Shown here piece by piece: positions 3,594 to 41,594 of a stretch of DNA of 64,000 bases. Source of the stretch: Ostrinia nubilalis (lineage: Eukaryota > Arthropoda > Insecta > Lepidoptera > Crambidae); NCBI RefSeq assembly GCF_963855985.1, contig NC_087117.1, positions 3,731,001 to 3,795,000 of the forward strand. Direction: 5' to 3'. A program made the translations under genes and the position numbers. Positions within the stretch are counted from its first letter, which is position 1. Each line of letters starts with the position of its first letter. Below the pieces are notes generated by a model that worked only from the letters and a program-made list of their open reading frames with translations, searched no databases and was not told where the DNA came from.

Positions 3594-4555
3594 CCTCGCG
3601 ACGCCGAAATGACTTCAAGAGTGGAGACGGTGTTGACTCTCAGTGCAGCAGAGAAGAGGGAGCTGTTCGCAGTTCTAGGGAAAACAGACGATGAGACACG
3701 AGAGGTGTTTGGCCTGTCCCTCACAGACACTGAATGGGCGTCAACGCTTCACATCAGCCAGGTGGTGGCATATCAGGGATTTGACCCGTTGAGGGTGATT
3801 GCCGAGTTTATGAAGAAAGGAAAAGCATCGCCTGGGGAAGAGATGAGGGGACGTGAGCGTGCAGGTGTGTGTGGGTACCAATCCAAAGGTGGACCTGCAG
3901 TTCCTGCTCACCCTTTTCATAACCAGAGGGAACAAACAATGCGGCTAAGATACTCCTCAAGTGTGACTCATCAGTGAAGAATGTCATACAGCGGAAGTGC
4001 AACCAGTATGGCATCAGCACTACAGCCAAAGCTGGGGCTGGTCCACTAGGACCATCAGTAATCACTCTGGCCAGGCTGTCACAGGCGTTTGCCCCAGCCA
4101 CTGCCTCAATAATATTGGGCCATTCCATAGCCGGCAACCTTAGGACAAAATTGTTTTCTGGGGTTGTGCTTCCGATAATAATCATGACCCACACGATCTT
4201 CCCGGCCCTTTTGAGGGAGACAGACAGTGAGCTCATTGAACTGGCTAAATACCTCAATATGGAGATGTCTATAATGCTGAGCACCCCGAAGGATAAGAGG
4301 AAGATGGCTGGGATGACCATGTCAGACCTGCTAGAACAATCAGAGTCTTTTGTCATGGCTGCAGTTAAAGGGTCCGTGTCCACCCCTGCCATAAAGAAGA
4401 AGGCGCTGATCAAAGCTGGTGTTCTGATGGCCAATGACACCTTCTCGCCGACTGTTCAGGCCATGATCGGCTTGTGCGGGAGGTTACACTCCCTGGGGTC
4501 TGAGACATATGCATCTGCCACGAAGAAGATGGCAGAGTTCACGGCCCCAAACTAA
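3594..4555 (+). pseudogene. Endogenous phenuivirus-type nucleoprotein (N) gene, broken
   Basis: A copy of a negative-strand RNA virus gene in the genome, by eye a nucleocapsid protein of the Phenuiviridae (phlebo-/tenuivirus group), which encapsidates viral RNA. The apparent N start is ATG 3609. Supporting features in order: the N-terminal helix with VAYQGFDPLRVIAEF (3755-3800), the block LLTLFITRGN (about 3900-3935), LARLSQAFA (about 4065), and a helical C-terminal half ending at the stop at 4553-4555. Total coding span is near 315 codons, closer to the longer tenuivirus-like N than to the roughly 245-aa phlebovirus N. The frame is broken twice, near 3845 and 3940, so no full N can be made. 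The last 193 codons remain open. It abuts a Jockey ORF1 on the same strand. Confidence 0.75.
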
Positions 4556-4639
4556 ACCGGGATCATGGGGAAGCACCGAGCCTGATCCCGAATCCAACGG
4601 TGCGTAACGAGGCTCATGTGAGATGAGGACTGTCACAGT

Positions 4640-4970
4640 CGGGGACGTGAGCGTACAGGTGTGTGTGGGTGCCAATCCAAAGGTGGACCTGCAGTTCCTG
4701 CTCACCCTTTTCATAACCAGAGGGAACAATGTGGCTAAGATACTCCTCAAGTGTGACTCATCAGTGAAGGATGTCATACAGCGGAAGTGCAACCAGTATG
4801 GCATCAGCACTACAGCCAAAGCTGGGGCTGGTCCACTAGGACCATCAGTAATCACTCTGGCCAGGCTGTCACAGGCGTTTGCCCCTGCCACTGCCTTAAT
4901 AATATTGGGCCATTCCATAGCCGGCAACCTTAGGACCAAACTGTTTTCTGGGGTTGTGACCATTATTTAA
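4640..4970 (+). pseudogene. Second, partial copy of the phenuivirus-type N gene
   Basis: This segment repeats 3853-4169 at high identity (a few substitutions and one small indel), covering the central part of N. It ends abruptly after GGGGTTGTG, where copy 1 continues. The 115-codon frame here is uninterrupted, unlike the same region of copy 1. The 85 bp between the copies (4556-4640) contain GGATCATGGGG...CCTGATCC and resemble neither copy. The truncation at both ends points to duplication or template jumping rather than a second viral gene. Confidence 0.75.
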
Positions 4971-10629: not shown

Positions 10630-11215
10630 AATACTCGACGGGAAAAGTCAGATTGCCTGCTCGTCATAGGGTATTATCACAAGAAGTTCTACCATTGCAA
10701 CTCTTCGACGGTGATCAACGAAGTGACGCAGAAATTATTTGGAGACTACTGGTGAGCTGTAAGATATTGGAATTTTTGGTAATGATGGATCACACATGGG
10801 TGTCAATGGTGCAGAGTCCACAAAGGGGAGCCTCAAGTACCACCTACCGGAGACTTGCCGGCCGAACGTTTGCAGCATCCCTCCGAAAAATGGCTGCACG
10901 CAAGAGGGAGGCTAAAGAATCTTCAGCGATAATGGAACCAACTTCGTGGGGGCCAACAGGGAATTAAAAGAGACTGCCTCACAAAGAAGGGAATCACATG
11001 GAGATTCATCCAACCTGGATATCCAAACATGGGAGCCTAAGGAGAGATCACCACCAGGAGAAGTCCAGCACACACTCCTCCTCGAAGTGGAGCATATTAT
11101 AAACTCGCGTCCACCTACCCACATCACCGCAGATCCCAATATGAAGAAAGCCTGACGGCGAACCACTTTCTAATCGGAAGCGATAGCGCCGGAGCATTGC
11201 CACTACGTTGTTGAA
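10630..11215 (+). mobile_element. BEL/Pao integrase fragment, frameshifted
   Basis: Pieces in changing frames read YHKKFYHCNSSTVINE (about 10677-10725, zinc-binding HHCC region). Next come DNGTNFVGANRELKE (10928-10972, with the second catalytic Asp in DNG), LLEVEHIINSRPPTH (11080-11120, catalytic Glu region), and LTANHFLIGSD (11153-11185). Order and motifs fit a BEL/Pao integrase. Several frame changes make it non-functional. It ends about 11215, where PB1-like sequence starts. Confidence 0.75.
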
Positions 11216-11219
11216 ACCT

Positions 11220-11545
11220 CTTCTTTACGTGGTTGAGGCGTTCCACTTGGGAGTTGGCAAAAAAGATTCCTGGCTCAACAATCTCCATCGGAGAAGAAAA
11301 GAAAGCAAAAATAACAAATAATATGGAGAGCACAAGAATGGACAGGAGTTGCAGCTTTCAGCAGCCAAGGGACTGAAGACGCAACTAAGTGGAATGAGTG
11401 TTTGGCCCTCAACAATTTGCCCTCATGCACCATTCTATGTTTCACTCTATGCACAGACTAAGTTTGAATTGTATGAGTACTCCGAAATTTTGTCAAAAGC
11501 TTGGAAATGCCATTTGTTTTTCAAGCATGGAAGCAAGTACAGTTA
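11220..11545 (+). pseudogene. Endogenous orthomyxovirus PB1-like fragment, second diverged copy
   Basis: Aligns by eye with 23330-23660 of the tandem array. Shared tracts are GAGGCGTTCCACTTGG / GAAGCATTCCATCTAG, the ATCTC.AT.GG.GAAGA.AA block, and GGGACTGAAGACGCAAC followed by AAGTGGAATGAGTG, which encodes the TKWNE polymerase motif A. The end, TTTTTCAAGCATGGAAG, matches TATTCCAAGCATGGAAG. It is diverged and frame-broken. It lies directly downstream of the BEL/Pao integrase fragment on the same strand. Confidence 0.7.
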
Positions 11546-11599
11546 GGGTCAGGTGTGCTTATTTATAATAAGCAATGACATTTTTTTCTTAAGGATACG

Positions 11600-11890
11600 A
11601 TACGGCAAGCTCTGCTTCAGGGAATCGTACCCGAGAGACCCGCCTGGTACTCTGATCTTGTCTCCTCGGAGGCTGCGTGAATTTGCGGCTGGCATAGGAG
11701 GAGGACCGCTAGCGCTGCACATGGTGTGTTGTACAGGCCCCAGAAGGGGGAGAACTACACAGAAGGGACAAGGACGTAGATTAAATAACTTGTAGGGAGT
11801 CAAGAAGTGTGGCGCGGTGGAGTGCAATCTGCCTTTGGCAGCTGCAATTCCGCGATTCGGCCAGTATAACCGCAAGGTTGGTGAACCGTC
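11600..11890 (+). repeat. Degenerate TE-derived segment, copy 2 (related to 1100-1490)
   Basis: Carries the same two blocks as 1100-1490 in the same order, with different indels. No intact frame. Origin unknown. Confidence 0.45.
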
Positions 11891-21100: not shown

Positions 21101-21104
21101 CCGG

Positions 21105-21845: not shown

Positions 21846-22283
21846 ACACCGCAATGGCAATGCTGCAGGTCGCCTGCTCTTCCCGCACTTTGTGTAGAGC
21901 CCTCAAATATTTCAGAGTAAACCCATAATGGATTTAAGAAATAAGAGCGAAGTCAAACCGATTGCCTTGAAAATTGGCTATTTTAACGCTAATGGGTACA
22001 AATTCTAGAGAATGGAACAAAATTAGAGAGATCCTCTCAAGCGATATGCGGCGGGAGCCCACGTGCATCACGAAGCTCTAAAGTGATCTTCACTTGTGCA
22101 AGTTCGGGACCTTGTCATTTAAAAAATATAGTTCTGTTTCTTTCGCACGAAAGTAATAATGCTTAAGTATGAATGTGATAGCTATATTTTCTAGGCACTA
22201 TGGTTGCTTTTCAAACAAAATTTTTCTTAATCTTTGGGCACGGGCACTTCACGCATTAGCGCCTTCCCGCCGCAGATCGCGTG
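21846..22283 (+). mobile_element. Jockey ORF1/ORF2 junction and unit-1-specific sequence
   Basis: TTAACACCGCAATGGC...CAGGTCGCCTGCTCTTCCCGCACTT and LKIGYFNANGY (ORF2 start) match the modules at 24727, 27522, 30304 and 39038, but with more differences. About 200 bp (22080-22280) are absent from the other units. Confidence 0.65.
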
Positions 22284-24680
22284 ATTGGATATCCTTTTCA
22301 AGACCTATTACAGCACACTTTTACCAGAATATTACCAATCAGCGATGAACATTTTCAATTTCTCAAAGAATTACAATGTGTTCCTTCCAGAACAAAAACT
22401 GGGGCTTTGACGGAAGTATGGGACAATCATTATACAAACATGCCTTTTCCGATGCTGAAGAAAATAGTCTCGTAGCCACCACATGTGACTATCACCACTG
22501 TCAGTCGACCTAAGAGGGCCCGCAAATTCGCGGCCTTTCCCTCTCCTTCCCGATTCGCAGTCGAACACCGGGCGGACTGTCAGATTCACCCCTAGTCTTT
22601 GTTTAAGACAAGACGTCCTGGAACAAATGACCGAATTGGACCGAGAATGGAGATTATTAAGAAACGACATTTAATTTCACGGAAAAAATGTGGATCCTAC
22701 ACCTGATGAATTCTGGAAGCATGTTTCATCCATTAAAAAAGGAGATCAGTGATATGCGAATTCATGAGAGAATTACTCGCACTTCGTAAAAAGGTATTTT
22801 ATTATCGGTAGGAGATGTATATTTTACTAAGGAGAATATGTTTGTATGTATACTATACAGACAAATTATTTGCCTTTCGCAAAAAGCACCGTCGCGGCGT
22901 GGTCCTTTTGCCACAAGGAAGGCAAACTTTATGTCCATTTAGAGAACAAAATGTAACTGCTGAGCTGCACAAGCTTATGAGACCGCGTTTGAGTTCTTGA
23001 ATTTTAAACACATCAAGAGATTGCTTCAGTTTGATAGACTGGATACAAACAATAATAGAGTGTTTTGACAAAGAGGAAATAATTGTGTTTACATTAAAAG
23101 AAGTAGAAATTGATGAAGATGCTATAGACTCAAAAACAAGTAACAACACTAAAGAGTTCTATTATAAAGTTAAAGAAAAAGATAGTGAGGGAAAACATTA
23201 AGGGGAAGGAAAATATTAGAAGAGTGATGCAACGCCTGGTAGGAAGCTTTGCCTCTTATATAAAACATAAAGAGAGAGGAAAGAAGGATCGGAGAGCAAT
23301 TGCCTCAGCAACTATGCTTTTTAGGCCTTTCCTGCATGTAATCGAAGCATTCCATCTAGAGCTATCCAAAGGATTGACTGGATCTACAATCTCTATAGGT
23401 GGCGAAGAGAAAAAGGCAAAAATCACTTCAAACATGGAAGTAACAACAGTACTAGACACAGAATTTCCCACTCATGTGTCGCAAGGGACTGAAGACGCAA
23501 CCAAATGGAATGAATGTCTAGCTCCAGCCATATTTTTCTTGATGCACCATTACATGTTCAAGGATTCAATAAGAGTAGCAAATCTGATACCTATGTTAAA
23601 GAGAACTGCACGCCTATTTCTTCTTATTTGCAAATATGGACATCTATTCCAAGCATGGAAGATGTTTCAAATTGGACCTGGTCCTATAGTTAAGAATGAC
23701 ACCAACTATGCAAGAATTAATTGGTCTAGAGAGTACATGGGTTCAATGAATGAACGCACAAAAGATAATACCTGACAACAAGTAGGTATTTCATGTCTAG
23801 TCCTGGCATGTTAATGGGAATGTTGAATGCTGCAAGTACTACAGTTGGACTAATTCCATTGAATTTTTGCATGAGCCAGAACGTCATGAAGGTTGTGTGC
23901 ATGAGGTCTAGCGATGATTCAACCACCAAGTATTTGTCTAACAGCTCAGAAAAAAACAAATTATGTGTATACTTAACAAACAAAATCTGTCTCTAGCCGG
24001 AATAAACCTTAGCCCTGACAAAACCTTCCTGCCGGAGGGAATCGCTGAGTATACCGTTGTATACATCGTGGTATATAGACGGAAAGTTTGTATCACAATA
24101 CGGAACAGAAGTTCTAAGTATCCGACCGCAAGGTAAAAGCCCTTACGATGATCTTTATGCTATTTCAAAAGGGACTTCCACTTTGTTACAGACGCTTGTT
24201 ATAAATCATTTGGGGGCAACAGCTAGGCTTAGAATAGGTGTTGCTGCTTGTAAACGGATCTGGAGAATGAAAGTTTGCTACAAACATAAGGGATGGCGTG
24301 TCCTTGAGTGTCCAATTAATAGAAGATGGGGGAGAAAACTTATGGAATTGTACAAAGTGTCACCTGAATGAGAGAAACGTAGATTAGCAAAAACTGATAA
24401 GAAGAAAAACTACTTAGGGAAGATAACGAACCCTGAAAATCCATTCAGTGAGTCTATTAATGAGGAGATGACATTCAAAAGAGCTTGGGTGCCTTGCACT
24501 TGACGTGGTAGAGACTCCCAACTGTGTTTTCCGTTACTGCAAGAGGTCATTATGAGCTGAAACGATAAAAATGTAGTGGTGTATAATTTACCTACTGAGG
24601 AATAAGTTAAGATTGTATTAAATAAGAAAAGACGAAACTTATGTACCACTTTTTACGTGTAAATAATAAAGAGAACACCT
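22284..24680 (+). pseudogene. Endogenous orthomyxovirus PB1-like polymerase gene, array copy 1
   Basis: By motif order this is the RNA-dependent RNA polymerase subunit PB1 of an orthomyxovirus, integrated as DNA. The clearest part is the 196-codon frame 23185-23775, containing a palm region with TKWNE (motif A, about 23500). A change of frame follows, then SSPGMLMGMLN (motif B, 23796-23830) and the SSDD signature (motif C, 23907-23918). A further change precedes GINLSPDKTF (motif D, 23998-24028). Then come 104 codons to the stop at 24369-24371. The N-terminal third is only patchily recognisable and a GC-rich patch (22505-22600) looks foreign. Frame changes and stops mean no polymerase is encoded. 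The arthropod quaranja-/thogoto-like group is the likely source. Confidence 0.75.
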
Positions 24681-24726
24681 AATAATTAAAGAAAATAGTT
24701 AATTAAGAATAAGAACATATTATTAT

Positions 24727-25063
24727 ATGGTATCGGTTACGAGTGAGCAATTCATCCCAGTCGGCAAGACCGGCAAGCGAGCCCGCAAATCTAAGCCCAA
24801 GGCGACCAGTTCGCCCAAGGCCAAACGGCCGGCCAACACCCAGGCCGAATCCGCCAGCCCGCTCCGGGCATCCGCGGCGGTCGAGGTTAACACCGCGGCA
24901 ATGCTACAGGTCGCCTACTCTTCCCGCACTTGGTGCAGAGCGCTAAAGGAATAAACCCATAATGGATTTACAAACCAAGAGCAGAGTCAAACCAAAATCC
25001 TTGAAAATTGACTATTTTAACGCTAATGGGTACAAATCCTAGAGAATGGAACAAAATCAGAGA
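24727..25063 (+). mobile_element. Jockey ORF1 C-terminus/ORF2 start module, unit 2
   Basis: A 75-codon frame (24727-24954) has a Lys/Pro-rich tract GKRARKSKPKATSSPKAKRP. The adjacent frame gives LKI.YFNANGYKS, the start of Jockey ORF2, which stops at once. The module is same-strand and directly upstream of PB1-like sequence. Confidence 0.65.
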
Positions 25064-27475
25064 TATCCTTTTCAAGACCTATTACAGCACACTTTTACCA
25101 GAATATTACCAATCAGCGATGAAGATTTTAAATTTCTCAAAGAATTGCAGATTTTAAATTTCTCAAAGAATTGCAATGTGTTCTGGAAGGAAAACTGGGG
25201 CTTTGACGGAAGTATGGGACACTCATTATACAAACATGCCTTTTCCGATGCTGAAGAAAATAGTCTCGTAGCCACCACATGTGACTATCACCACTGTCAG
25301 GCGACCTAAGAGGGCCCGCAAATTCGCGGCCTTTCCCTCTCCTTCCCGATTCGCAGTCGAACACCGGGCGGACTGTCAGATTCACCCCTAGTCTTTGTTT
25401 AAGACAAGACGTCCTGGAACAAATGACCGAATTGGACCGAGAATGGAGATTATTAAGAAACGACATTTAATTTCACGGAAAAAATGTGGATCCTACACCT
25501 GATGAATTCTGGAAGCATGTTTCATCCATTAAAAAAGGAGATCAGTGATATGCGAATTCATGAGAGAATTACTCGCACTTCGTAAAAAGGTATTTTATTA
25601 TCGGTAGGAGATGTATATTTTACTAAGGAGAATATGTTTGTATGTATACTATACAGACAAATTATTTGCCTTTCGCAAAAAGCACCGTCGCGGCGTCGTC
25701 CTTTTGACACAAGGAAGGCAAACTTTTTGTCCATTTAGAGAACAAAATGTAACTGCTGAGCTGCACAAGCTTATGAGACCGCGTTTGAGTTCTTGAATTT
25801 TAAACACATCAAGAGATTGCTTCAGTTTGATAGACTGGATACAAACAATAATAGAGTGTTTTGACAAAGAGGAAATAATTGTGTTTACATTAAAAGAAGT
25901 AGAAATTGATGAAGATGCTATAGACTCAAAAACAAGTAACAACACTAAAGAGTTCTATTATAAAGTTAAAGAAAAAGATAGTGAGGGAAAACATTAAGGG
26001 GAAGGAAAATATTAGAAGAGTGATGCAACGCCTGGTAGGAAGCTTTGCCTCTTATATAAAACATAAAGAGAGAGGAAAGAAGGATCGGAGAGCAATTGCC
26101 TCAGCAACTATGCTTTTTAGGCCTTTCCTGCATGTAATCGAAGCATTCCATCTAGAGCTATCCAAAGGATTGACTGGATCTACAATCTCTATAGGTGGCG
26201 AAGAGAAAAAGGCAAAAATCACTTCAAACATGGAAGTAACAACAGTACTAGACACAGAATTTCCCACTCATGTGTCGCAAGGGACTGAAGACGCAACCAA
26301 ATGGAATGAATGTCTAGCTCCAGCCATATTTTTCTTGATGCACCATTACATGTTCAAGGATTCAATAAGAGTAGCAAATCTGATACCTATGTTAAAGAGA
26401 ACTGCACGCCTATTTCTTCTTATTTGCAAATATGGACATCTATTCCAAGCATGGAAGATGTTTCAAATTGGACCTGGTCCTATAGTTAAGAATGACACCA
26501 ACTATGCAAGAATTAATTGGTCTAGAGAGTACATGGGTTCAATGAATGAACGCACAAAAGATAATACCTGACAACAAGTAGGTATTTCATGTCTAGTCCT
26601 GGCATGTTAATGGGAATGTTGAATGCTGCAAGTACTACAGTTGGACTAATTCCATTGAATTCTTGCATGAGCCAGAACGTCATGAAGGTTGTGTGCATGA
26701 GGTCTAGCGATGATTCAACCACCAAGTATTTGTCTAACAGCTCAGAAAAAACAAATTATGTGTATACTTAACAAACAAAATCTGTCTCTAGCCGGAATAA
26801 ACCTTAGCCCTGACAAAACCTTCCTGCCGGAGGGAATCGCTGAGTATACCGTTGTATACATCGTGGTATATAGACGGAAAGTTTGTATCACAATACGGAA
26901 CAGAAGTTCTAAGTATCCGACCGCAAGGTAAAAGCCCTTACGATGATCTTTATGCTATTTCAAAAGGGACTTCCACTTTGTTACAGACGCTTGTTATAAA
27001 TCATTTGGGGGCAACAGCTAGGCTTAGAATAGGTGTTGCTGCTTGTAAACGGATCTGGAGAATGAAAGTTTGCTACAAACATAAGGGATGGCGTGTCCTT
27101 GAGTGTCCAATTAATAGAAGATGGGGGAGAAAACTTATGGAATTGTACAAAGTGTCACCTGAATGAGAGAAACGTAGACTAGCAAAAACTGATAAGAAGA
27201 AAAACTACTTAGGGAAGATAACGAACCCTGAAAATCCATTCAGTGAGTCTATTAATGAGGAGATGACATTCAAAAGAGCTTGGGTGCCTTGCATTTGACG
27301 TGGTAGAGACTCCCAACTGTGTTTTCCGTTACTGCAAGAGGTCATTATGAGCTGAAACGATAAAAATGTAGTGGTGTATAATTTACCTACTGAGGAATAA
27401 GTTAAGATTGTATTCAATAAGAAAAGACGAAACTTATGTACCACTTTTTACGTGTAAATAATAAAGATAACACCT
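25064..27475 (+). pseudogene. Endogenous PB1-like gene, array copy 2
   Basis: Nearly identical to copy 1 over the palm region; the 196-codon frame 25981-26571 encodes the same peptide as in copies 1, 3 and 4. Motif B at about 26592-26625 and SSDD at about 26703-26714 are preserved, with the same frame changes, so the copies duplicated after the gene was already broken. It differs from copy 1 by scattered substitutions and a one-base loss in the poly(A) run after the SSDD block. Confidence 0.75.
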
Positions 27476-27521
27476 AATAATTAAAGAAAATAGTTAATTA
27501 AGAATAAGAACATATTATTAT

Positions 27522-27857
27522 ATGGTATCGGTTACGAGTGAGCAATTCATCCCAGTCGGCAAGACCGGCAAGCGAGCCCGCAAATCTAAGCCCAAGGCGA
27601 CCAGTTCGCCCAAGGCCAAACGGCCGGCCAACACCCAGGCCGAATCCGCCAGCCCGCTCCGGGCATCCGCGGCGGTCGAGGTTAACACCGCGGCAATGCT
27701 ACAGGTCGCCTACTCTTCCCGCACTTGGTGCAGAGCGCTAAAGGAATAAACCCATAATGGATTTACAAACCAAGAGCAGAGTCAAACCAAAATCCTTGAA
27801 AATTGGCTATTTTAACGCTAATGGGTACAAATCCTAGAGAATGGAACAAAATCAGAG
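27522..27857 (+). mobile_element. Jockey module, unit 3
   Basis: Same 75-codon frame and ORF2 start as in unit 2; ends at AGAGAGAACC before the PB1-like part. Confidence 0.65.
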
Positions 27858-30257
27858 AGAACCTTTTCAAGACCTATTACAGCACACTTTAGCCAGAATA
27901 TTACCAATCAGCCATAAAGGTACAATATTGTACCCAATTTTTTTTTAAAGAATTGCAATGTGTTCTGGAAGGAAAACTGGGGCTTTGACGGAAGTATGGG
28001 ACACTCATTATACAAACATGCCTTTTCCGATGCTGAAGAAAATAGTCTCGTAGCCACCACATGTGACTATCACCACTGTCAGGCGACCTAAGAGGGCCCG
28101 CAAATTCGCGGCCTTTCCCTCTCCTTCCCGATTCGCAGTCGAACACCGGGCGGACTGTCAGATTCACCCCTAGTCTTTGTTTAAGACAAGACGTCCTGGA
28201 ACAAATGACCGAATTGGACCGAGAATGGAGATTATTAAGAAACGACATTTAATTTCACGGAAAAAATGTGGATCCTACACCTGATGAATTCTGGAAGCAT
28301 GTTTCATCCATTAAAAAAGGAGATCAGTGATATGCGAATTCATGAGAGAATTACTCGCACTTCGTAAAAAGGTATTTTATTATCGGTAGGAGATGTATAT
28401 TTTACTAAGGAGAATATGTTTGTATGTATACTATACAGACAAATTATTTGCCTTTCGCAAAAAGCACCGTCGCGGCGTCGTCCTTTTGACACAAGGAAGG
28501 CAAACTTTTTGTCCATTTAGAGAACAAAATGTAACTGCTGAGCTGCACAAGCTTATGAGACCGCGTTTGAGTTCTTGAATTTTAAACACATCAAGAGATT
28601 GCTTCAGTTTGATAGACTGGATACAAACAATAATAGAGTGTTTTGACAAAGAGGAAATAATTGTGTTTACATTAAAAGAAGTAGAAATTGATGAAGATGC
28701 TATAGACTCAAAAACAAGTAACAACACTAAAGAGTTCTATTATAAAGTTAAAGAAAAAGATAGTGAGGGAAAACATTAAGGGGAAGGAAAATATTAGAAG
28801 AGTGATGCAACGCCTGGTAGGAAGCTTTGCCTCTTATATAAAACATAAAGAGAGAGGAAAGAAGGATCGGAGAGCAATTGCCTCAGCAACTATGCTTTTT
28901 AGGCCTTTCCTGCATGTAATCGAAGCATTCCATCTAGAGCTATCCAAAGGATTGACTGGATCTACAATCTCTATAGGTGGCGAAGAGAAAAAGGCAAAAA
29001 TCACTTCAAACATGGAAGTAACAACAGTACTAGACACAGAATTTCCCACTCATGTGTCGCAAGGGACTGAAGACGCAACCAAATGGAATGAATGTCTAGC
29101 TCCAGCCATATTTTTCTTGATGCACCATTACATGTTCAAGGATTCAATAAGAGTAGCAAATCTGATACCTATGTTAAAGAGAACTGCACGCCTATTTCTT
29201 CTTATTTGCAAATATGGACATCTATTCCAAGCATGGAAGATGTTTCAAATTGGACCTGGTCCTATAGTTAAGAATGACACCAACTATGCAAGAATTAATT
29301 GGTCTAGAGAGTACATGGGTTCAATGAATGAACGCACAAAAGATAATACCTGACAACAAGTAGGTATTTCATGTCTAGTCCTGGCATGTTAATGGGAATG
29401 TTGAATGCTGCAAGTACTACAGTTGGACTAATTCCATTGAATTCTTGCATGAGCCAGAACGTCATGAAGGTTGTGTGCATGAGGTCTAGCGATGATTCAA
29501 CCACCAAGTATTTGTCTAACAGCTCAGAAAAAACAAATTATGTGTATACTTAACAAACAAAATCTGTCTCTAGCCGGAATAAACCTTAGCCCTGACAAAA
29601 CCTTCCTGCCGGAGGGAATCGCTGAGTATACCGTTGTATACATCGTGGTATATAGACGGAAAGTTTGTATCACAATACGGAACAGAAGTTCTAAGTATCC
29701 GACCGCAAGGTAAAAGCCCTTACGATGATCTTTATGCTATTTCAAAAGGGACTTCCACTTTGTTACAGACGCTTGTTATAAATCATTTGGGGGCAACAGC
29801 TAGGCTTAGAATAGGTGTTGCTGCTTGTAAACGGATCTGGAGAATGAAAGTTTGCTACAAACATAAGGGATGGCGTGTCCTTGAGTGTCCAATTAATAGA
29901 AGATGGGGGAGAAAACTTATGGAATTGTACAAAGTGTCACCTGAATGAGAGAAACGTAGACTAGCAAAAACTGATAAGAAGAAAAACTACTTAGGGAAGA
30001 TAACGAACCCTGAAAATCCATTCAGTGAGTCTATTAATGAGGAGATGACATTCAAAAGAGCTTGGGTGCCTTGCATTTGACGTGGTAGAGACTCCCAACT
30101 GTGTTTTCCGTTACTGCAAGAGGTCATTATGAGCTGAAACGATAAAAATGTAGTGGTGTATAATTTACCTACTGAGGAATAAGTTAAGATTGTATTCAAT
30201 AAGAAAAGACGAAACTTATGTACCACTTTTTACGTGTAAATAATAAAGATAACACCT
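27858..30257 (+). pseudogene. Endogenous PB1-like gene, array copy 3
   Basis: Palm frame 28763-29353 is identical in translation to the other copies. Motif B lies at about 29374 and SSDD at about 29485. The same disabling frame changes are present. Confidence 0.75.
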
Positions 30258-30303
30258 AATAATTAAAGAAAATAGTTAATTAAGAATAAGAACATATTAT
30301 TAT

Positions 30304-30639
30304 ATGGTATCGGTTACGAGTGAGCAATTCATCCCAGTCGGCAAGACCGGCAAGCGAGCCCGCAAATCTAAGCCCAAGGCGACCAGTTCGCCCAAGGCCA
30401 AACGGCCGGCCAACACCCAGGCCGAATCCGCCAGCCCGCTCCGGGCATCCGCGGCGGTCGAGGTTAACACCGCGGCAATGCTACAGGTCGCCTACTCTTC
30501 CCGCACTTGGTGCAGAGCGCTAAAGGAATAAACCCATAATGGATTTACAAACCAAGAGCAGAGTCAAACCAAAATCCTTGAAAATTGGCTATTTTAACGC
30601 TAATGGGTACAAATCCTAGAGAATGGAACAAAATCAGAG
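30304..30639 (+). mobile_element. Jockey module, unit 4
   Basis: Same frame and junction as units 2 and 3. Confidence 0.65.
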
Positions 30640-33039
30640 AGAACCTTTTCAAGACCTATTACAGCACACTTTAGCCAGAATATTACCAATCAGCCATAAA
30701 GGTACAATATTGTACCCAATTTTTTTTTAAAGAATTGCAATGTGTTCTGGAAGGAAAACTGGGGCTTTGACGGAAGTATGGGACACTCATTATACAAACA
30801 TGCCTTTTCCGATGCTGAAGAAAATAGTCTCGTAGCCACCACATGTGACTATCACCACTGTCAGGCGACCTAAGAGGGCCCGCAAATTCGCGGCCTTTCC
30901 CTCTCCTTCCCGATTCGCAGTCGAACACCGGGCGGACTGTCAGATTCACCCCTAGTCTTTGTTTAAGACAAGACGTCCTGGAACAAATGACCGAATTGGA
31001 CCGAGAATGGAGATTATTAAGAAACGACATTTAATTTCACGGAAAAAATGTGGATCCTACACCTGATGAATTCTGGAAGCATGTTTCATCCATTAAAAAA
31101 GGAGATCAGTGATATGCGAATTCATGAGAGAATTACTCGCACTTCGTAAAAAGGTATTTTATTATCGGTAGGAGATGTATATTTTACTAAGGAGAATATG
31201 TTTGTATGTATACTATACAGACAAATTATTTGCCTTTCGCAAAAAGCACCGTCGCGGCGTCGTCCTTTTGACACAAGGAAGGCAAACTTTTTGTCCATTT
31301 AGAGAACAAAATGTAACTGCTGAGCTGCACAAGCTTATGAGACCGCGTTTGAGTTCTTGAATTTTAAACACATCAAGAGATTGCTTCAGTTTGATAGACT
31401 GGATACAAACAATAATAGAGTGTTTTGACAAAGAGGAAATAATTGTGTTTACATTAAAAGAAGTAGAAATTGATGAAGATGCTATAGACTCAAAAACAAG
31501 TAACAACACTAAAGAGTTCTATTATAAAGTTAAAGAAAAAGATAGTGAGGGAAAACATTAAGGGGAAGGAAAATATTAGAAGAGTGATGCAACGCCTGGT
31601 AGGAAGCTTTGCCTCTTATATAAAACATAAAGAGAGAGGAAAGAAGGATCGGAGAGCAATTGCCTCAGCAACTATGCTTTTTAGGCCTTTCCTGCATGTA
31701 ATCGAAGCATTCCATCTAGAGCTATCCAAAGGATTGACTGGATCTACAATCTCTATAGGTGGCGAAGAGAAAAAGGCAAAAATCACTTCAAACATGGAAG
31801 TAACAACAGTACTAGACACAGAATTTCCCACTCATGTGTCGCAAGGGACTGAAGACGCAACCAAATGGAATGAATGTCTAGCTCCAGCCATATTTTTCTT
31901 GATGCACCATTACATGTTCAAGGATTCAATAAGAGTAGCAAATCTGATACCTATGTTAAAGAGAACTGCACGCCTATTTCTTCTTATTTGCAAATATGGA
32001 CATCTATTCCAAGCATGGAAGATGTTTCAAATTGGACCTGGTCCTATAGTTAAGAATGACACCAACTATGCAAGAATTAATTGGTCTAGAGAGTACATGG
32101 GTTCAATGAATGAACGCACAAAAGATAATACCTGACAACAAGTAGGTATTTCATGTCTAGTCCTGGCATGTTAATGGGAATGTTGAATGCTGCAAGTACT
32201 ACAGTTGGACTAATTCCATTGAATTCTTGCATGAGCCAGAACGTCATGAAGGTTGTGTGCATGAGGTCTAGCGATGATTCAACCACCAAGTATTTGTCTA
32301 ACAGCTCAGAAAAAACAAATTATGTGTATACTTAACAAACAAAATCTGTCTCTAGCCGGAATAAACCTTAGCCCTGACAAAACCTTCCTGCCGGAGGGAA
32401 TCGCTGAGTATACCGTTGTATACATCGTGGTATATAGACGGAAAGTTTGTATCACAATACGGAACAGAAGTTCTAAGTATCCGACCGCAAGGTAAAAGCC
32501 CTTACGATGATCTTTATGCTATTTCAAAAGGGACTTCCACTTTGTTACAGACGCTTGTTATAAATCATTTGGGGGCAACAGCTAGGCTTAGAATAGGTGT
32601 TGCTGCTTGTAAACGGATCTGGAGAATGAAAGTTTGCTACAAACATAAGGGATGGCGTGTCCTTGAGTGTCCAATTAATAGAAGATGGGGGAGAAAACTT
32701 ATGGAATTGTACAAAGTGTCACCTGAATGAGAGAAACGTAGACTAGCAAAAACTGATAAGAAGAAAAACTACTTAGGGAAGATAACGAACCCTGAAAATC
32801 CATTCAGTGAGTCTATTAATGAGGAGATGACATTCAAAAGAGCTTGGGTGCCTTGCATTTGACGTGGTAGAGACTCCCAACTGTGTTTTCCGTTACTGCA
32901 AGAGGTCATTATGAGCTGAAACGATAAAAATGTAGTGGTGTATAATTTACCTACTGAGGAATAAGTTAAGATTGTATTCAATAAGAAAAGACGAAACTTA
33001 TGTACCACTTTTTACGTGTAAATAATAAAGATAACACCT
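30640..33039 (+). pseudogene. Endogenous PB1-like gene, array copy 4
   Basis: Palm frame 31545-32135 has the same translation as the other copies. Motif B is near 32156 and SSDD near 32267. The same frame breaks occur as in copies 2 and 3. Confidence 0.75.
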
Positions 33040-33304
33040 AATAATTAAAGAAAATAGTTAATTAAGAATAAGAACATATCGCCCATTTGCGACGACACTG
33101 TGACATCTCGACATATACGATTTTTTCTTTTACCGAAATTCTGAACCGCGATCTTGCGTTCTTTTATCTCCAAAAACAGGGTATTTGTTACTCCAAAAAC
33201 AACAATACTATGAGAGAAAGAGACAAAATATTACGTTATAGCGCTGGCTCGTTCGGCGATCTAGTTGGCTTCGACACTGTGACAGTTCAGTTGCCACCTG
33301 CGCT

Positions 33305-33583
33305 TTGAGATGTGAGGTGCTCTTCGTTTTTAAGAAAAACGTGACATCTCGAGGATACCGCGGTATTGATGACAAAGGTAAGTTTTTAAAATATTATTAT
33401 TTTATTCGACAATGTGGCACGTCATACTTATCACAGTGTTCTTCTAAAACAAAAAGCAAAGTAAAAGAGAAATTATTTATATGTCACGTTATTCTTGTAA
33501 GAAAATCGAAGTATCATCGGGACATCTTAACTAGTAACGTTGTAGATGATGAAAATTTTTCCTATATTGAAAATATGTTGTAG
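33305..33583 (+). CDS. Unrecognised 92-aa ORF in the TIR element
   Basis: The frame opens MRCEVLFVFKKNVTSRGYRG. Its first part may be an exon, ending at a good splice donor (GACAAAG|GTAAGT, 33370-33380), with the remainder being intron. CGTGACATCTCG near 33340 repeats the subterminal sequence of the element (33099). Function unknown; it may be a transposase exon. Confidence 0.3.
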   Translation: MRCEVLFVFKKNVTSRGYRGIDDKGKFLKYYYFIRQCGTSYLSQCSSKTKSKVKEKLFICHVILVRKSKYHRDILTSNVVDDENFSYIENML

Positions 33584-34655
33584 GTCATTTGTTGATGTTC
33601 TGTTATTGCAGAATACATGCTATTGAAATTGAATGGTATATCTACTTGTCACGTTGTATACGCTAAACAGTAATACTAAACTCCAGATATCATTACAGAT
33701 GGGGACTAGCAATGCAAAAAAGCAAAGGTTAACATTTGTGGCGATGCACTGCCTGAAGGAATTCCACAACCTAATCCGACAACATGACTAACAGCGCTAT
33801 GCGAGCGCTGTGAAAGTGTCTCTTTGAGCTACAATAACGTCGAAACTAATATGAGTAGATGTAGACTGATAAACATACATTCGTTTTGAAGAATAGTTCA
33901 AATACTAGAAATACAGTGCAAATAAAACATACTTATACGACTGTCTGTTTTTACAGACACAACAAGCAAAATATTTTATATTAACATACGATAGCCTTAG
34001 ATTAGCTTAATCTAAGACGATAGTTAACAAAATTATCTATTAGTAGAAGTATGCTAGAATAGCAATGCGTTGGATGACCCCAGATATTTATTTATTTATG
34101 TAATTATTCAATGTTACTTAGCTGTATTGGCTATGTTTTGCTTTCTGCAAAAAAATTATTTTAACGTTTTAATATAATTACAGATAATCAGCAATTGATG
34201 GAATTGTATCGCTTCTTGCCTTGCCCAAATATACTTTGGCGGGCGCAACATTGTTTTGTATAATAACATTGCAATAGGTATAACTATTTCAGAAAAACTA
34301 CGCCAATAAAATGGCTACATTATTTATAAATAGTGGTTGTTATTTTTCACTATTAATACATTAATTAAATATCTTTTATAAAGGACAATGGGCAAAATGG
34401 TACCCGGCTCCAATAGATATGAGTCTAGTATCGTTTGAAAGGTCTTACCAAGATGAACAACTTTTACTATGACCACCAGCCTCAGATCTGGTTGTGTACG
34501 AAGATATACATACTTTTTTGCAGAATGGTACCCGGCTCCAATAGTTATGTTTGTAGTGTCATTTGAAAGGTCTTACCAAGACGAACAACATTTACTATGG
34601 CCACCAGCCTCAGATCTGGTTGCGTTCGAAGATAAAGATACTTTTTGTGTAACCT

Positions 34656-34855
34656 AAGTATCATACAGTATGAAAAGGGACGCGCTCGGGGCAGGGCATC
34701 GACGAGATGGTCGGACGCGGTGAGGAAGACGGTGGGCGGGAGTTTGCATCGTGCGGTCCACACAGCTTATGACCGCAGTCTGTGGAGGAACACTATCTGT
34801 GGTCGCGATCCTCATCAGTGAGGGACCGAGGAAGAAGAAGAAGAAGTATCATACG
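34656..34855 (+). mobile_element. 5'-truncated LINE insertion with target-site duplication
   Basis: One frame reads ASTRWSDAVRKTVGGSLHRA then YDRSLWRNTI, a typical LINE ORF2 C-terminus. It ends in a (GAA)n-type tail and is flanked by AAGTATCATAC on both sides (34656 and 34846). Confidence 0.7.
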
Positions 34856-35159
34856 TGTCCATCGTATGGTACTTGGGTTATGCGAGGTAGGAAGGGTTTA
34901 CTGCTCCAGCATCCTTCCTTAACTCTATAATTATTGATGGGGATAGTTGTGAAATAAATATTTTTATTTAAAGAAGTACTACCCCCTTATTAATAAAAAG
35001 TTACACCTAGGAAGAACCTTGGATTAAAATGACATTTCCATACCAAATGACAATTTAAGCCAGAGTTCAACTAGGGTGTAACTTGTATATTAATAAAGGG
35101 GTTAAAGTTTTATTACTTCTTAAGGGTTTTATTATGGGTTGCTAAAGCGAATAAACCCA

Positions 35160-35325
35160 CAAGACCCAATAAGTCCATCCACAAGATGGACCGACGACCT
35201 CATAAAGGTAGCGGGAAGGCGCTGGATGCAGGCCGCCACCAACCGGCCATTGTGGAAATCATTGGGGGAGGCCTATGTTCAACTGGACGTCCTATGGCTA
35301 AAATGATCATGATGATGATGATGAA
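35160..35325 (+). mobile_element. RTE-like LINE 3' end
   Basis: STRWTDDLIKVAGRRWMQAA then WKSLGEAYVQLDVL is the same ORF2 C-terminus as at 17283, here in one orientation, ending in an (ATG)n tail (35305-35322). Confidence 0.75.
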
Positions 35326-35639
35326 AGCGAATAAAGGGCAAATAGCTTGGGTAGTTCATCGTAGGTATAATCCTTTCCTTTTCAATGCTTCTTTTAGTTA
35401 TATTAATAGATTGTAGTCATAATACATACTCGTATACATGGATGATTGTGTTATACTTTCATTATAATACTTAGTGGAATTACTGCTTTCAAAACGTGAA
35501 TTAGAACTGGCCCCATAGCAGACATTTTCCTACATCTAAAGGCCTTTTAAAATATATATTGGTTATGGCTATTGGAGCGGGTACCACTTTCCATACATTT
35601 GTGCCCATCATCCTTTAATTTTAAATAAGTATAAAAAAT

Positions 35640-36112
35640 TAAAACCCTAAAAGGTACCAAAATGTCGCTTTTTTGCCATTTTATGCGCCGGAGACGGCGA
35701 TTTTTGCGTTGATAATTTTAGGATTAAATTGTCTTAACTAGTCAGTTAAAAAACATCTATTTACTAACCTAGTAGGTACCTACAATTTTTTCTTCTGCAT
35801 ACATACATACTTAGTACAGTTTCTCTTACTGTGTTTTTTTTTGTAGTAGTTTACGAGGTTTTACTTTTGAGAGTTTTTCGTTTATTTTGATAAGCATTAG
35901 TTTTTAGAATAAGAAAACTTAATGTGAGCTTAAATATTGTATGTATACAACTGTCTGTCTACTTAGATAATATTTTTATAAGTGCAATTTAACATGGCAA
36001 AGCGAAATATTCGCCTGTTCCAAAAATTACCTCATTTTTACTGATTGTAATGTTATTAAAATAAAATAAAAATTTTCAAGATCAACGTTTTATCTAAATA
36101 ATGACTTATATA
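35640..36112. other. AT-rich interval, no gene recognised
   Basis: No coding or repeat partner seen. Confidence 0.4.
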
Positions 36113-38715
36113 TGTTACTGTAAAAGCTAGAATTGCAGTAAATCCTAAGATATTCCAGTAAAACCTAAGATCTACCAATTCCTAATGGTAAATGTCCCAA
36201 AATGTTTGCGATTCGAACTCTTACCACCATTTCGTTGGTAAATCTTAGGATTTACATTAATGGCACGGTAAATGTTGAAAAACAAAACATGTCATTACGT
36301 GCTCAGCGCATCGACTTGTGCATGTTGGTAGCTTGCCGCCCCCGCTACCCGCGCACCGTCTCCGCCGATCCGCTCGCCTCATTCGCTTGTTGGACACGTT
36401 TGAACTTGCACGATAATTTGATTTCTAATTGTATTTTTGGTGTTTAAAAGTTATTTGTGAGTAAAAATGAGTATGAAGCATAGATTTTATGAAATAATGG
36501 ACGAGCTTGTGGCAAACAAGAAAGATAATAACTTTTATCTCGATAAGGACAAATACGCTAAGTGTTTAGAGGAAGTAAAAACTGCAAAGAACATTAAAAA
36601 GAAGGAAGCTGTTCATTACAGGCGTATAAAACGCTATGATATTTTGACTATAGGCGGCGAAGAAAAGCTAATTGCCCCGATGAAGGAAGATAATGGAGAA
36701 ATCAAATATTATGTTTGTTACGACGATTTATTTAACATTCTCGAAGAAACGCATTTTGCTGTTGGACACGGTGGAAGAACAAGGATGCTCAAAGAATGTA
36801 ACCGCAAGTATAATAATATTACAGTTGAGGCTATCATGACATATTTGAAATTATGCCAACCTTGTCAAAAGAAACAGAAGACTTTGAAAAAGGGTATTGT
36901 CATTAAGCCTATACTTCATAGTGAAATGAACTCACGTTGTCAAGTAGATCTCATAGATCTACAAACTAATCCTGACGGAAATTATAAATTTATATTAGTT
37001 TATCAAGACCATCTCACTAAATTCGTGATCCTTCGTGCACTTCAAACTAAACGCGCAACTGAAGTCGCATATCATCTATTGGATATTTTTACCACTTTTG
37101 GAGCGCCCAACATCCTTCATTCCGATAATGGTCGGGAATTCAGTAATCAAATAATTGAAAATGTATGCTCTATGTGGCCAGATGTTAAAATCGTACACGG
37201 AAAGCCAAGGCATAGCCAGAGTCAAGGATCGGTAGAGCGTGCAAATCAAGACATAGAAAATATGCTCAGTACGTGGATGGAAACCAATCAGATTACAAAG
37301 TGGTCAGAAGGCTTGAAATTTATCCAGGCCATGAAAAATCGAGCATATCATGAGGGAATCAAATGCTCTCCTTACGAAGCAATGTTTGGTAGTCCAATGA
37401 AAATGGGCATTGCGACATCAGCTATTCCTAAAGATATGATTGGACTATTAAAATCGGAAGAAGATTTGGAAAATGTGTTGCGTTCCCGAAAAAATGATGA
37501 AAATGTGATAGAACAGGACAAGGAAAACATCATCGTTGGTAATGAGTCAGAAGGAATAAAAAAAGGAATGAGTAAAAATGTGAACACCAAAACACAAGAA
37601 AAAGAAATGATTGCACTGGAACAGACAACAGAGAAACAAATAACCGATGATACCAATCTAACTATTAAAATACAAACCGATTCAGAGTCAGAAAGCGCTA
37701 TTCAAGCTGAACAAGATCCAATAACAAAGAAGATAGAATCTATTCAAACAATAAGAACAAAAGCTAAATTTAATTTGGAAAACCAAGCTGAAAAAATGAA
37801 AACCATATCAGGTGATAAATATTCAAATGTGGAAGTGGGCCAAAATGTAAGACTGAAAGTACCTGATATTGACAGATCGAAAACTGACCCAAAAAGCATT
37901 ATTGCAGTTGTGATAGATGTAAAGGACAATGAGTTTTACCAACTAGGTACCAAAATGGGAATACTAAAACAGCTTTACATCAAGAATCAGTTCGCCGCAT
38001 GCTCTGAAGATTTTATAAAGATAGAAGAAGTTGTTACGGATAAAGAAGTGAGTCTCCGAGAAGTTGTCGGAAAATTGTCGTTAAGTGGAGGACAAGGATT
38101 CAAAAAATGTAATTGTCAAAAAAAATGCTCGACAAAAAAATGCACTTGCAGATCATCAGGATTACTTTGTAATTCTAAATGCCACAATAGCAATCCGTGT
38201 TGTAACAAGTGAAATGTTATTTTTAGGTACCTACCTTACTTATTAATCAGTTACATTTGATTGTCTTCTTTTTACTTGTAAACCAAATAATAAGAAAAAT
38301 AATTATTAAGTTAGACTAGCATAAGTAAGCATTATGTTTGTATTTCTTTGTTAAATTCCAAATAGAGAACTACTGATTCAGTTAGATAGATATGATAGAG
38401 ATTGAGATATTCAGAGATATACGTTGTGTTTTTTCAAAATAATTTAAATAAGTTGGTATTAGTTTGTACTTGTGTACCTGTTTTGTAATAGTTGATTAAA
38501 GTAAGTAATTAAGAATTACTCATTGTTTTATTCCTAAAACCAACATCTACCAGCTGACAGAGGTAAAACCTAGCATATACTGAATTCGTATGGTAAAAGC
38601 TCGAAAAAATCGTCGTATTTTCAGAAATACTTACATTTACCAACTCATGTCGGTAAATCCTAAGACTTACACTTAAATCTTAAGATTAACCGTAGTTCGA
38701 GCTTTTACAGTAACA
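36113..38715 (+). mobile_element. Ginger-type DNA transposon, apparently complete (2603 bp)
   Basis: Left TGTTACTGTAAAAGCT and inverted right TGTTACTGTAAAAGCT are identical over 16 bp, with further imperfect pairing inward. The four-base target TATA is present on both sides (36109-36112, 38716-38719). The TGT start and 4-bp target fit Ginger elements, DNA transposons related to gypsy-type integrases. Subterminal GGTAAATCTTAGGATTTAC-like short repeats occur at both ends. It sits inside the 33080-39025 element. Confidence 0.85.
36467..38212 (+). CDS. Ginger-type transposase (DDE integrase core), 581 aa, intact
   Basis: Cuts and joins the Ginger element ends. The frame is uninterrupted. Domains: N-terminal 80 residues; HHCC zinc-binding domain (H96, H101, C130, C133); integrase catalytic core with D161 (CQVDLIDLQ), D220 (HSDNGREF) and E257 (SQGSVERAN), the last two 36 residues apart as in retroviral-type integrases. 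A Lys/Glu-rich linker (about 345-450) and a GPY-like region follow. The C-terminal cysteine-rich module (549-579: CNCQKKCSTKKCTCRSSG...CNSKCH) resembles CXC/tesmin-like repeats and may bind DNA. The start is the first ATG after the leader, 354 bp from the TIR. The gene lies centrally between perfect TIRs. Related host-domesticated proteins (KRBA2-like) exist, but the context here is a transposon. Confidence 0.85.
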   Translation: MSMKHRFYEIMDELVANKKDNNFYLDKDKYAKCLEEVKTAKNIKKKEAVHYRRIKRYDILTIGGEEKLIAPMKEDNGEIKYYVCYDDLFNILEETHFAVGHGGRTRMLKECNRKYNNITVEAIMTYLKLCQPCQKKQKTLKKGIVIKPILHSEMNSRCQVDLIDLQTNPDGNYKFILVYQDHLTKFVILRALQTKRATEVAYHLLDIFTTFGAPNILHSDNGREFSNQIIENVCSMWPDVKIVHGKPRHSQSQGSVERANQDIENMLSTWMETNQITKWSEGLKFIQAMKNRAYHEGIKCSPYEAMFGSPMKMGIATSAIPKDMIGLLKSEEDLENVLRSRKNDENVIEQDKENIIVGNESEGIKKGMSKNVNTKTQEKEMIALEQTTEKQITDDTNLTIKIQTDSESESAIQAEQDPITKKIESIQTIRTKAKFNLENQAEKMKTISGDKYSNVEVGQNVRLKVPDIDRSKTDPKSIIAVVIDVKDNEFYQLGTKMGILKQLYIKNQFAACSEDFIKIEEVVTDKEVSLREVVGKLSLSGGQGFKKCNCQKKCSTKKCTCRSSGLLCNSKCHNSNPCCNK

Positions 38716-39029
38716 TATAAATATTTTTTTTTACATCATCTTCAACGTGACAACTGAACTTACCATCTTCAAAATATTATTTTTTACTAGAACAACGTGA
38801 TAAGTTGTCTCTTTTTTTTTCAATCGCTATGATTTCATCAATTTAGACGCAAAGTTATATCTTACTATAAATATTTAAATTCATTAATAGTTAATCTTTA
38901 AACGTTTCATACACAATTAGGTAATCCTAACCTTCTTTTAAGAGTTATGGTCATTCAAAAGTTAAAAAGTCGATTTCTGTAAAACCACTATTTTTGATAT
39001 ATCACAGTGTCGTCGCAAATGGACGATAT

Positions 39030-39371
39030 TATTATATGGTATCGGTTACGAGTGAGCAATTCATCCCAGTCGGCAAGACCGGCAAGCGAGCCCGCAAATC
39101 TAAGCCCAAGGCGACCAGTTCGCCCAAGGCCAAACGGCCGGCCAACACCCAGGCCGAATCCGCCAGCCCGCTCCGGGCATCCGCGGCGGTCGAGGTTAAC
39201 ACCGCGGCAATGCTACAGGTCGCCTACTCTTCCCGCACTTGGTGCAGAGCGCTAAAGGAATAAACCCATAATGGATTTACAAACCAAGAGCAGAGTCAAA
39301 CCAAAATCCTTGAAAATTGGCTATTTTAACGCTAATGGGTACAAATCCTAGAGAATGGAACAAAATCAGAG
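39030..39371 (+). mobile_element. Jockey module, unit 5
   Basis: Resumes at ATTATTATATGGTATCGG right after the TIR element; same frames as in units 2-4. Confidence 0.65.
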
Positions 39372-39800
39372 AGAACCTTTTCAAGACCTATTACAGCACA
39401 CTTTTGCCAGAATATTACCAATCAGCCATAAAGGTACAATATTGTACCCAATTTTTTTTTAAAGAATTGCAATGTGCTCTGGAAGGAAAACTGGGGCTTT
39501 GACGGAAGTATGGGACACTCATTATACAAACATGCCTTTTCCGATGCTGAAGAAAATAGTCTCGTAGCCACCACATGTGACTATCACCACTGTCAGGCGA
39601 CCTAAGAGGGCCCGCAAATTCGCGGCCTTTCCCTCTCCTTCCCGATTCGCAGTCAAACACCGGGCGGACTGTCAGTTTCACCCCTAGTCTTTGTTTAAGA
39701 CAAGACGTCCTGGAACAAATGGCCGAATTGGATATTGGACCGAGAGTAGAGATTATTAAGAAACGACATTTAATTTCACGGAAAAAATGTGGATCCTACT
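39372..39800 (+). pseudogene. Endogenous PB1-like gene, array copy 5, truncated
   Basis: Follows units 3 and 4 (with the GGTACAATATTGTACC palindrome at about 39434) to AATGTGGATCCTAC, then departs to unrelated DNA. Only the poorly recognisable 5' part is retained; the palm motifs are missing. Confidence 0.7.
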
Positions 39801-40706: not shown

Positions 40707-40719
40707 GTTCAAGTCGTCA

Positions 40720-41590: not shown

Positions 41591-41594
41591 ATCA

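What the first reader, a model, noticed from the sequence alone, without database searches (positions are those of the whole stretch)
22284..39800. Tandem array of endogenous orthomyxovirus PB1-like genes, each fused to a Jockey fragment
Units at 24727, 27522 and 30304 (periods 2795 and 2782 bp), an older unit starting near 22284 and a truncated fifth carry a polymerase-like gene with TKWNE, SPGMLMGMLN, SSDD and NLSPDKTF blocks in PB1 order. All long copies share the same frame breaks, so amplification followed inactivation. Viral insertions in insects are common, but a satellite-like array of a viral polymerase fused to a LINE is unusual. The array suggests unequal crossing-over and possible selection for dosage of antisense or small RNA.
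Basis: partly seen in the sequence, partly recalled or inferred. Interest (0 to 1): 0.92.

Follow-up and report, generated by a model that had tools for sequence, protein, structure and literature searches.

The report
Stacked dead virus genes beside histones
In what is likely a moth or butterfly genome, a broken polymerase gene of an influenza-family virus, likely captured with the help of jumping elements, stands in four head-to-tail copies inside a 95-kilobase cluster of captured virus genes beside the histone genes, a place where one could test whether such clusters would serve as a memory of past infections.

Summary
The array is real. Copies spaced 2,795, 2,782 and 2,782 bases hold a broken orthomyxovirus PB1 gene joined to fragments of two LINE families; units 3 and 4 are identical, the edge units have diverged, and a 5.9-kb integrase element with 4-base target duplications later split the array. 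The fifth unit has no PB1. The window lies in a 495-Mb genome, likely lepidopteran, and begins about 28 kb right of the last histone gene found in the histone array. Around it, 10 PB1 stretches lie within 95 kb, all on one strand, from at least two and likely three or more separately captured virus lineages: a longer PB1 relic 22 kb upstream differs from the array copy in about 32% of bases with saturated synonymous change, although the adjoining flank is 97% alike. The genome's only phenuivirus-like nucleocapsid match lies here too. Only two other PB1 loci were found. Best reading: repeated capture, likely with LINE help, in a recombination-prone locus, then unequal crossing-over. A role in small-RNA defence is possible but untested. 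The kind (clustered insect viral insertions) is known; this form appears new.

The parts
22288..24716 (+). Array unit 1, viral part V1 (PB1 homology about 22905-24548); edge unit
24717..25061 (+). LINE fragment J of unit 2 (JkB ORF1 aa 104-149 and 538-562, ORF2 aa 1-30)
25062..27511 (+). Array unit 2, viral part V2 with JkA ORF1 patch then PB1
27512..27861 (+). LINE fragment J of unit 3
27862..30293 (+). Array unit 3, viral part V3
30294..30643 (+). LINE fragment J of unit 4
30644..33079 (+). Array unit 4, viral part V4, identical to unit 3
33080..39025 (+). Later insertion (Ginger-like, name recalled): terminal inverted repeats alike in 23 of 24 bases, target duplication ATAT, integrase ORF 36461-38212
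39026..39799 (+). Truncated unit 5: J plus first 424 bases of V, no PB1
23128..23775 (+). Longest open PB1 piece (215 aa, Flu_PB1 positions 202-382); same in units 2-4 at 25924, 28706, 31488
1..447 (+). 3' end of PB1 relic A (about C30:3729163 to window 447), a separate lineage
448..606 (+). Patch of histone-repeat spacer (between H2B and H2A) directly after PB1 relic A, 92.6% alike
11178..11659 (+). PB1 relic C; 97% duplicate C' at C30:3717652-3718090
1514..3609 (+). LINE ORF1 stretch, 90% alike to a copy at C30:3651316-3653401, ending at the probable nucleocapsid start codon
3609..4555 (+). Phenuivirus-like nucleocapsid relic, copy 1 (Tenui_N 1.6e-4, below the curated cut-off, for 3923-4552; the part 3609-3846 assigned by inference)
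4608..4970 (+). Nucleocapsid relic, tandem partial copy 2 (96% to copy 1 over 322 bases), the only Tenui_N match found in the genome
10420..22041 (+). Segmental duplicate of C30:3716895-3728099, with gaps; pieces of 500 bases or more 95-97% alike, one gapped piece 89%
22036..22287 (.). 252-base MITE-like insert with 15-base inverted ends (by eye) between the unit-1 LINE piece and V1

Best explanation
Four head-to-tail copies of a broken orthomyxovirus PB1 gene joined to LINE fragments stand in a 95-kb cluster of virus-derived sequence near the histone gene array of a likely lepidopteran genome, and they likely arose by capture of viral RNA during LINE reverse transcription followed by multiplication through unequal crossing-over. 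Shown: identity, copy number in the assembly, unit homogeneity, LINE patches, neighbouring PB1 and nucleocapsid relics, duplicated flanks. Inferred: (1) viral mRNAs were reverse-transcribed by LINE enzymes with template jumps (the LINE-to-virus junctions of relic A and of the N relic fall at or near the probable viral gene start); (2) this happened at least twice, likely three or more times, with related orthomyxoviruses in the same locus; (3) the locus, full of duplicated LINE and flank sequence, then expanded the composite J-V-JkA-PB1 by unequal exchange, which keeps central units identical while edge units drift; (4) the integrase element inserted after amplification.
For: PB1. Array homogeneity with diverged edges and two subtypes. 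Insertion after amplification, since J of unit 5 resumes after a 4-base target duplication. LINE patches of two families, open in the neighbouring histone array, both ORF2s with RVT_1 and endonuclease domains. Junctions: JkA homology stops at L013:7162 and the Flu_PB1 match of relic A begins at profile position 6 at L013:7173; LINE homology stops at window 3609, at a start codon in frame with the upstream N piece. Separate captures: A versus V1, 433 codons, differences 90/56/263 by codon position, pS 0.885, pN 0.162, while the adjoining 1.7-kb flank is 97% alike; A groups with P0002 and not V, support 99/87. Cluster: 10 PB1 stretches within 95 kb, all + strand; otherwise only C22 and C43.
Against: No poly(A) tail or clean target-site duplication was seen, on inspection, around relic A or the array unit, so LINE-driven insertion is inferred from patches only; capture during break repair would look similar. 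The order J, 76 bases, JkA is shared by relic A and the array although their PB1 genes differ, which a simple insertion history does not explain. Lineages beyond A and V rest on weaker tests (V-C p 0.006, V-D p 0.012), and E1 and E2 gave no codon-position signal (p 0.95 and 0.13). P0002 may itself be a relic. Unit count rests on one assembly.
Confidence: 0.72

Rival explanations
1. The cluster is a piRNA source locus, and the array was kept because more PB1 copies give more antisense piRNA against orthomyxoviruses.
For: 10 of 10 PB1 stretches and both N copies on one strand; viral clusters with duplications lie in piRNA clusters in Aedes (PMC5497376 passages).
Against: No small-RNA data. By lineage the strand bias is at most 5 of 5, two-sided p 0.06; LINE pieces run both ways. 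Neutral unequal exchange explains the homogeneity.
Confidence: 0.25
2. The viral pieces were captured as patches during repair of DNA breaks, with viral cDNA made elsewhere, not by LINE target-primed insertion.
For: Relic A is flanked by a LINE piece on one side and a 160-base histone spacer piece on the other; short patches from several sources follow each other; no tail seen.
Against: In the two junctions read, the LINE piece lies upstream in the same orientation and stops near the probable viral gene start, which repair would not require.
Confidence: 0.25
3. The identical units are an assembly artefact of a single unit.
For: Units 3 and 4 are identical, within an identical run of 5,133 bases; histone repeats also stand on short contigs C47 and C48, so repeats may have been hard to assemble here.
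Against: Unit 1, the first 110 bases of unit 2 and the truncated unit 5 each carry private differences; the inserted element splits a fifth J; no N in the 264 kb read.
Confidence: 0.07
4. PB1 relics A and V are one old host-kept gene that was duplicated and diverged under host selection, then died.
For: Third-position excess would also arise under selection in the host.
Against: The adjoining flank is only 3% diverged against saturated synonymous sites; an outside sequence falls between A and V, though it may itself be a relic.
Confidence: 0.04

Closest known systems
Clustered non-retroviral viral insertions in piRNA clusters of Aedes aegypti and Ae. albopictus (PMC5497376, passages seen)
   Same: Many viral insertions concentrated in a few TE-rich regions, with local duplication; template switching proposed.
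   Different: There rhabdovirus, flavivirus and bunyavirus sequence, LTR elements, piRNA shown; here orthomyxovirus PB1 and a phenuivirus-like N, LINE patches, beside histone genes, no RNA evidence, and a near-identical tandem array (the word tandem does not occur in that paper's main text).
Orthomyxovirus PB1 insertions in ticks (PMC10675110, passages seen) and orthomyxo-like insertions in the firefly Photinus (PMC6191289, passages seen)
   Same: Same virus family fixed in arthropod genomes; PB1 in ticks.
   Different: No tandem array in the passages seen; the firefly appendix on viral elements is not in the held text.
Viral helicase domains inside TRAS and Jockey LINEs of insects (PMC5563155, abstract and passages seen)
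   Same: LINEs joined to RNA-virus sequence, in Lepidoptera for TRAS.
   Different: There an open helicase travels with the LINE; here broken PB1 is fused to LINE scraps and amplified locally.

Membership tests
Endogenous orthomyxovirus PB1 element | PB1 sequence homology | tested here: met
   Flu_PB1 4.1e-25; 16 of 16 structure hits named RNA polymerase catalytic subunit; 60 of 60 homologues carry PF00602
Endogenous orthomyxovirus PB1 element | Embedded in host chromosome | tested here: met
   Within contig C30 of 7.5 Mb, with TEs and histone genes nearby
Endogenous orthomyxovirus PB1 element | Placement within a named genus such as quaranjavirus | not testable with these tools
   No named full-length virus could be compared; the viral-contig scan confirmed 0 of 67 stretches
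   tblastn patches; open ORF2s with RVT_1 and Exo_endo_phos; the clade name itself not tested
LINE retrotransposition of the viral unit | Target-site duplication and 3' tail | tested here: inconclusive
   Relic A ends against a histone spacer patch with no tail seen; array unit 3' end only AT-rich
Tandem array by unequal crossing-over | Head-to-tail units, homogeneous centre, diverged edges | tested here: met
piRNA cluster | 24-30 nt 1U small RNAs from the locus | not testable with these tools
   No RNA data held
Ginger-type DNA transposon (33080-39025) | rve integrase, terminal inverted repeats, short target duplication | tested here: met
   rve 4.4e-8, repeats and ATAT read by eye; family definition recalled

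The most novel reading that the evidence does not exclude
The flank of the histone locus is a virus-gene trap: LINEs resident in the histone array repeatedly copied the nuclear mRNA of successive orthomyxoviruses, again and again PB1 and always in one orientation, and the locus turns these captures into an antisense small-RNA archive whose PB1 dose is set by unequal crossing-over.
Probability: 0.17. Interest if true: 0.82.

Novelty: new variant of a known kind. Interest (0 to 1): 0.55.

Why it matters
It gives a series of captures of one viral gene at one chromosomal address, with internal controls: separate virus lineages, post-integration duplicates, and identical tandem units. That makes two open questions testable in Lepidoptera: whether certain loci attract or retain RNA-virus insertions, and whether copy number of such an insertion changes small-RNA output. 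It also puts viral capture beside the fast-recombining histone locus; a search of the held library for 'endogenous viral element' together with 'histone gene cluster' returned 0 papers.

Tried and rejected
IMG/VR scan with a PB1 alignment: 67 pattern stretches, none confirmed. Pfam on the downstream 121-aa piece of the array PB1: no family; solved structures: 8 beta-lactamase matches at E 0.92-0.99, taken as chance. Pfam on the pieces at window 1-174, 11215-11373 and 11315-11458 and on the N-side piece 3537-3974: no family; those relics rest on tblastn and blastn. tblastn of the relic-A N-terminal piece against V: no convincing match, so V lacks that part. Idea that relics A and V are duplicates: rejected. 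Idea that C and D are two separate lineages: not decided, because they cover different parts of PB1. W-chromosome idea: not tested. Genome-wide DNA search with the array unit and a search for mononegavirus L (PF00946) did not complete, so short or decayed copies of the array unit could be missed, and other virus families in the cluster are untested. Species not identified; Lepidoptera rests on histone H1: of the first 11 named hits, 9 are Lepidoptera, the other two are labelled Macadamia and Acinetobacter, which I take for contamination; 120 of 1130 hits were listed and 7994 candidates scored. A papers search for endogenous viral elements, tandem, orthomyxo, PB1 and transposable element gave one paper, the firefly genome, whose appendix on viral elements lies beyond the held text.
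Full report
OBSERVATION. V1 22288-24716, V2 25062-27511, V3 27862-30293, V4 30644-33079 alternate with LINE fragment J at 24717, 27512, 30294 and 39026. Units 3 and 4 are identical over 2782 bases, within an identical run of 5,133 bases. Outside the first 113 bases, unit 1 differs from each of units 2-4 by 10 substitutions in 2315 aligned bases, and units 2, 3 and 4 show no substitution there; over 300 bases unit 5 differs from units 2, 3 and 4 by 5 and from unit 1 by 7. The first about 110 bases of V come in two forms, one in units 1 and 2, another in units 3, 4 and 5 (and sequence). A homogeneous centre with drifting edges and local subtypes is what repeated unequal exchange leaves (established knowledge of tandem repeats).

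The fifth unit has J and 424 bases of V but no PB1. Between unit 4 and unit 5 lies 33080-39025, 5,946 bases with inverted ends alike in 23 of 24 bases, flanked by ATAT on both sides, and a 583-aa open frame with an rve integrase domain. It came after the array was made.

WHAT THE GENE IS. The open piece 23128-23772 matches Pfam Flu_PB1 at 4.1e-25, profile positions 202-382. All 16 solved-structure matches up to E 1 are named RNA-directed RNA polymerase catalytic subunit; that these are influenza and Thogoto PB1 is recalled. Of 145 candidates, 60 proteins passed, 60 of 60 with PF00602; the best is a Pieris macdunnoughi protein, 66% identical over 96% of the piece. Candidates were limited to 0.55-1.75 times the piece's length, so full-length virus proteins could not appear. 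In each unit the PB1 lacks its N-terminal part: the relic-A N-terminal piece has no convincing match in V, and PB1 homology in V begins near 22905. The 215-aa and 121-aa open pieces recur in 4 of 4 units; units 2, 3 and 4 carry the same stop pattern, and unit 1 differs by one single-base length change. So the gene was broken before it was multiplied.

THE FUSED PART. Open LINEs JkA (ORF1 533 aa, ORF2 978 aa) and JkB (567 and 1012 aa) stand in the neighbouring histone array; both ORF2s have RVT_1 and endonuclease domains. J in each unit is JkB ORF1 aa 104-149, ORF1 aa 538-562 and ORF2 aa 1-30; then about 76 bases of unassigned sequence; then JkA ORF1 patches, weak (E 1e-4 to 9e-4 by protein, 85-89% over 72 bases by DNA), then PB1. 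Unit 1 is instead preceded by another JkB piece, 83% alike, and a 252-base insert with inverted ends.

BEYOND THE WINDOW. The window is C30:3731001-3795000 of a 495-Mb assembly in 52 contigs. I read C30:3631001-3895000 (and the window). tblastn with the 60 relatives found 10 PB1 stretches, all on the + strand, beginning at window coordinates -13348, -1827, 11178, 22905, 25701, 28483, 31265, 65167, 80363 and 81200, spanning 95 kb. Genome-wide, the Pfam search gave 12 matches at three places, C30, C43 and C22; the protein search gave 15 matches, 10 on C30, 2 on C22, 3 on C43; the tool calls such counts lower bounds. The Tenui_N profile has one match in the genome, window 4677-4904; two partial tandem copies of that nucleocapsid relic lie at about 3609-4555 and 4608-4970; copy 1 alone scores below Pfam's cut-off, copy 2 above it.

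To the left, C30:3.63-3.70 Mb holds open H3, H2B and H2A genes (Pfam-checked in L022), H1 (its listed relatives carry PF00538) and H4 (named by recall), with 4 histone 3' stem-loops. Of 65 core-histone matches in the genome the repeated cluster is on C30 and on short contigs C47 and C48; C27 has a group of three, and single or paired matches occur on five other contigs. A 160-base piece of histone spacer, 92.6% alike, directly follows PB1 relic A.

The region is built of duplications: C30:3716895-3728099 matches window 10420-22041 in pieces of 95-97% (down to 89% for one piece), and 40242-44190, 66214-70253 and 82087-85976 are 97-99% alike.

SEPARATE CAPTURES. Relic A (about L013:7163 to window 447) and V1 share 68% of bases. 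Over 433 comparable codons they differ 90, 56 and 263 times at codon positions 1, 2, 3; pS 0.885, pN 0.162; a repeat with other settings gave 98/63/272 in 454 codons, chi-square p 2e-38. Such change is made while a protein is under selection, not in two dead copies, and the adjoining 1.7 kb of flank is only 3% apart. In a tree of 52 rows A groups with P0002 (99/87), V outside; P0002 lacks a residue that is invariant in 9 aligned relatives and may be a relic from another genome. Relics C and D differ from A with third-position excess (p 0.0017 and 1.3e-4), and from V more weakly (0.006 and 0.012); C' gave p 0.0046 against A. E1 and E2 gave none (0.95 and 0.13). D against E2, duplicates of each other, differ without third-position excess (8/16/8, raw phase), which serves as a control. 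C and D cover different PB1 parts. So the count of lineages is at least two, likely three or more. A rough bound for chance clustering in one 95-kb stretch is 1e-6 for three of five lineages and 2e-3 for two of four, after the fact.

HOW IT MAY HAVE ARISEN. LINE homology stops at L013:7162, next to the start of PB1 relic A (profile position 6 at L013:7173), and at window 3609, at the probable start codon of the N relic; in both the LINE piece is upstream and in the same direction. This fits a reverse transcriptase that ran to the 5' end of a viral mRNA and jumped to LINE RNA. It is inferred; neither tail nor target duplication was seen, and break repair remains possible. The shared order J, 76 bases, JkA in relic A and in the array, with different PB1 genes behind, is not fully explained; two nested insertions followed by unequal exchange between the JkB copies would do.

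KNOWN WORK. In Ae. aegypti, one fourth of viral insertions lie in two regions with piRNA clusters and duplications (PMC5497376, passages). PB1 insertions are reported in ticks (PMC10675110, passages), orthomyxo-like insertions in a firefly (PMC6191289, passages). LINEs carrying viral helicase occur in Lepidoptera (TRAS) and, as Jockey elements, in other orders (PMC5563155, abstract and passages). A search for viral elements with tandem array, insect and piRNA cluster gave 2 papers (listing only), with histone gene cluster 0.

HOST. Of the first 11 named relatives of the H1 protein 9 are moths and butterflies; species unknown.

Noticed in passing
window 3609-4970: Phenuivirus-like nucleocapsid relic in two tandem partial copies, joined near its probable start codon to a LINE ORF1; only such match found in the genome.
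   Followed up: partly
window 33080-39025: Integrase transposon with an open 583-aa frame, Cys-rich tail, inverted ends and 4-base target duplication.
   Followed up: partly
C30:3631001-3711000 (L016-L023): Histone repeat array in which open LINEs of two families recur in several units.
   Followed up: partly
window 44765-46271 and 53880-54860: 16-base repeat units in opposite orientation, looking like subterminal repeats of DNA transposons.
   Followed up: no
window 22036-22287: 252-base MITE-like insert with 15-base inverted ends next to unit 1.
   Followed up: no
L014 (C43:12498552-12500702) and L015 (C22:12086400-12087346): Two further PB1 relics on other contigs, placed in other parts of the tree (the C22 piece fills 45% of columns).
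   Followed up: partly
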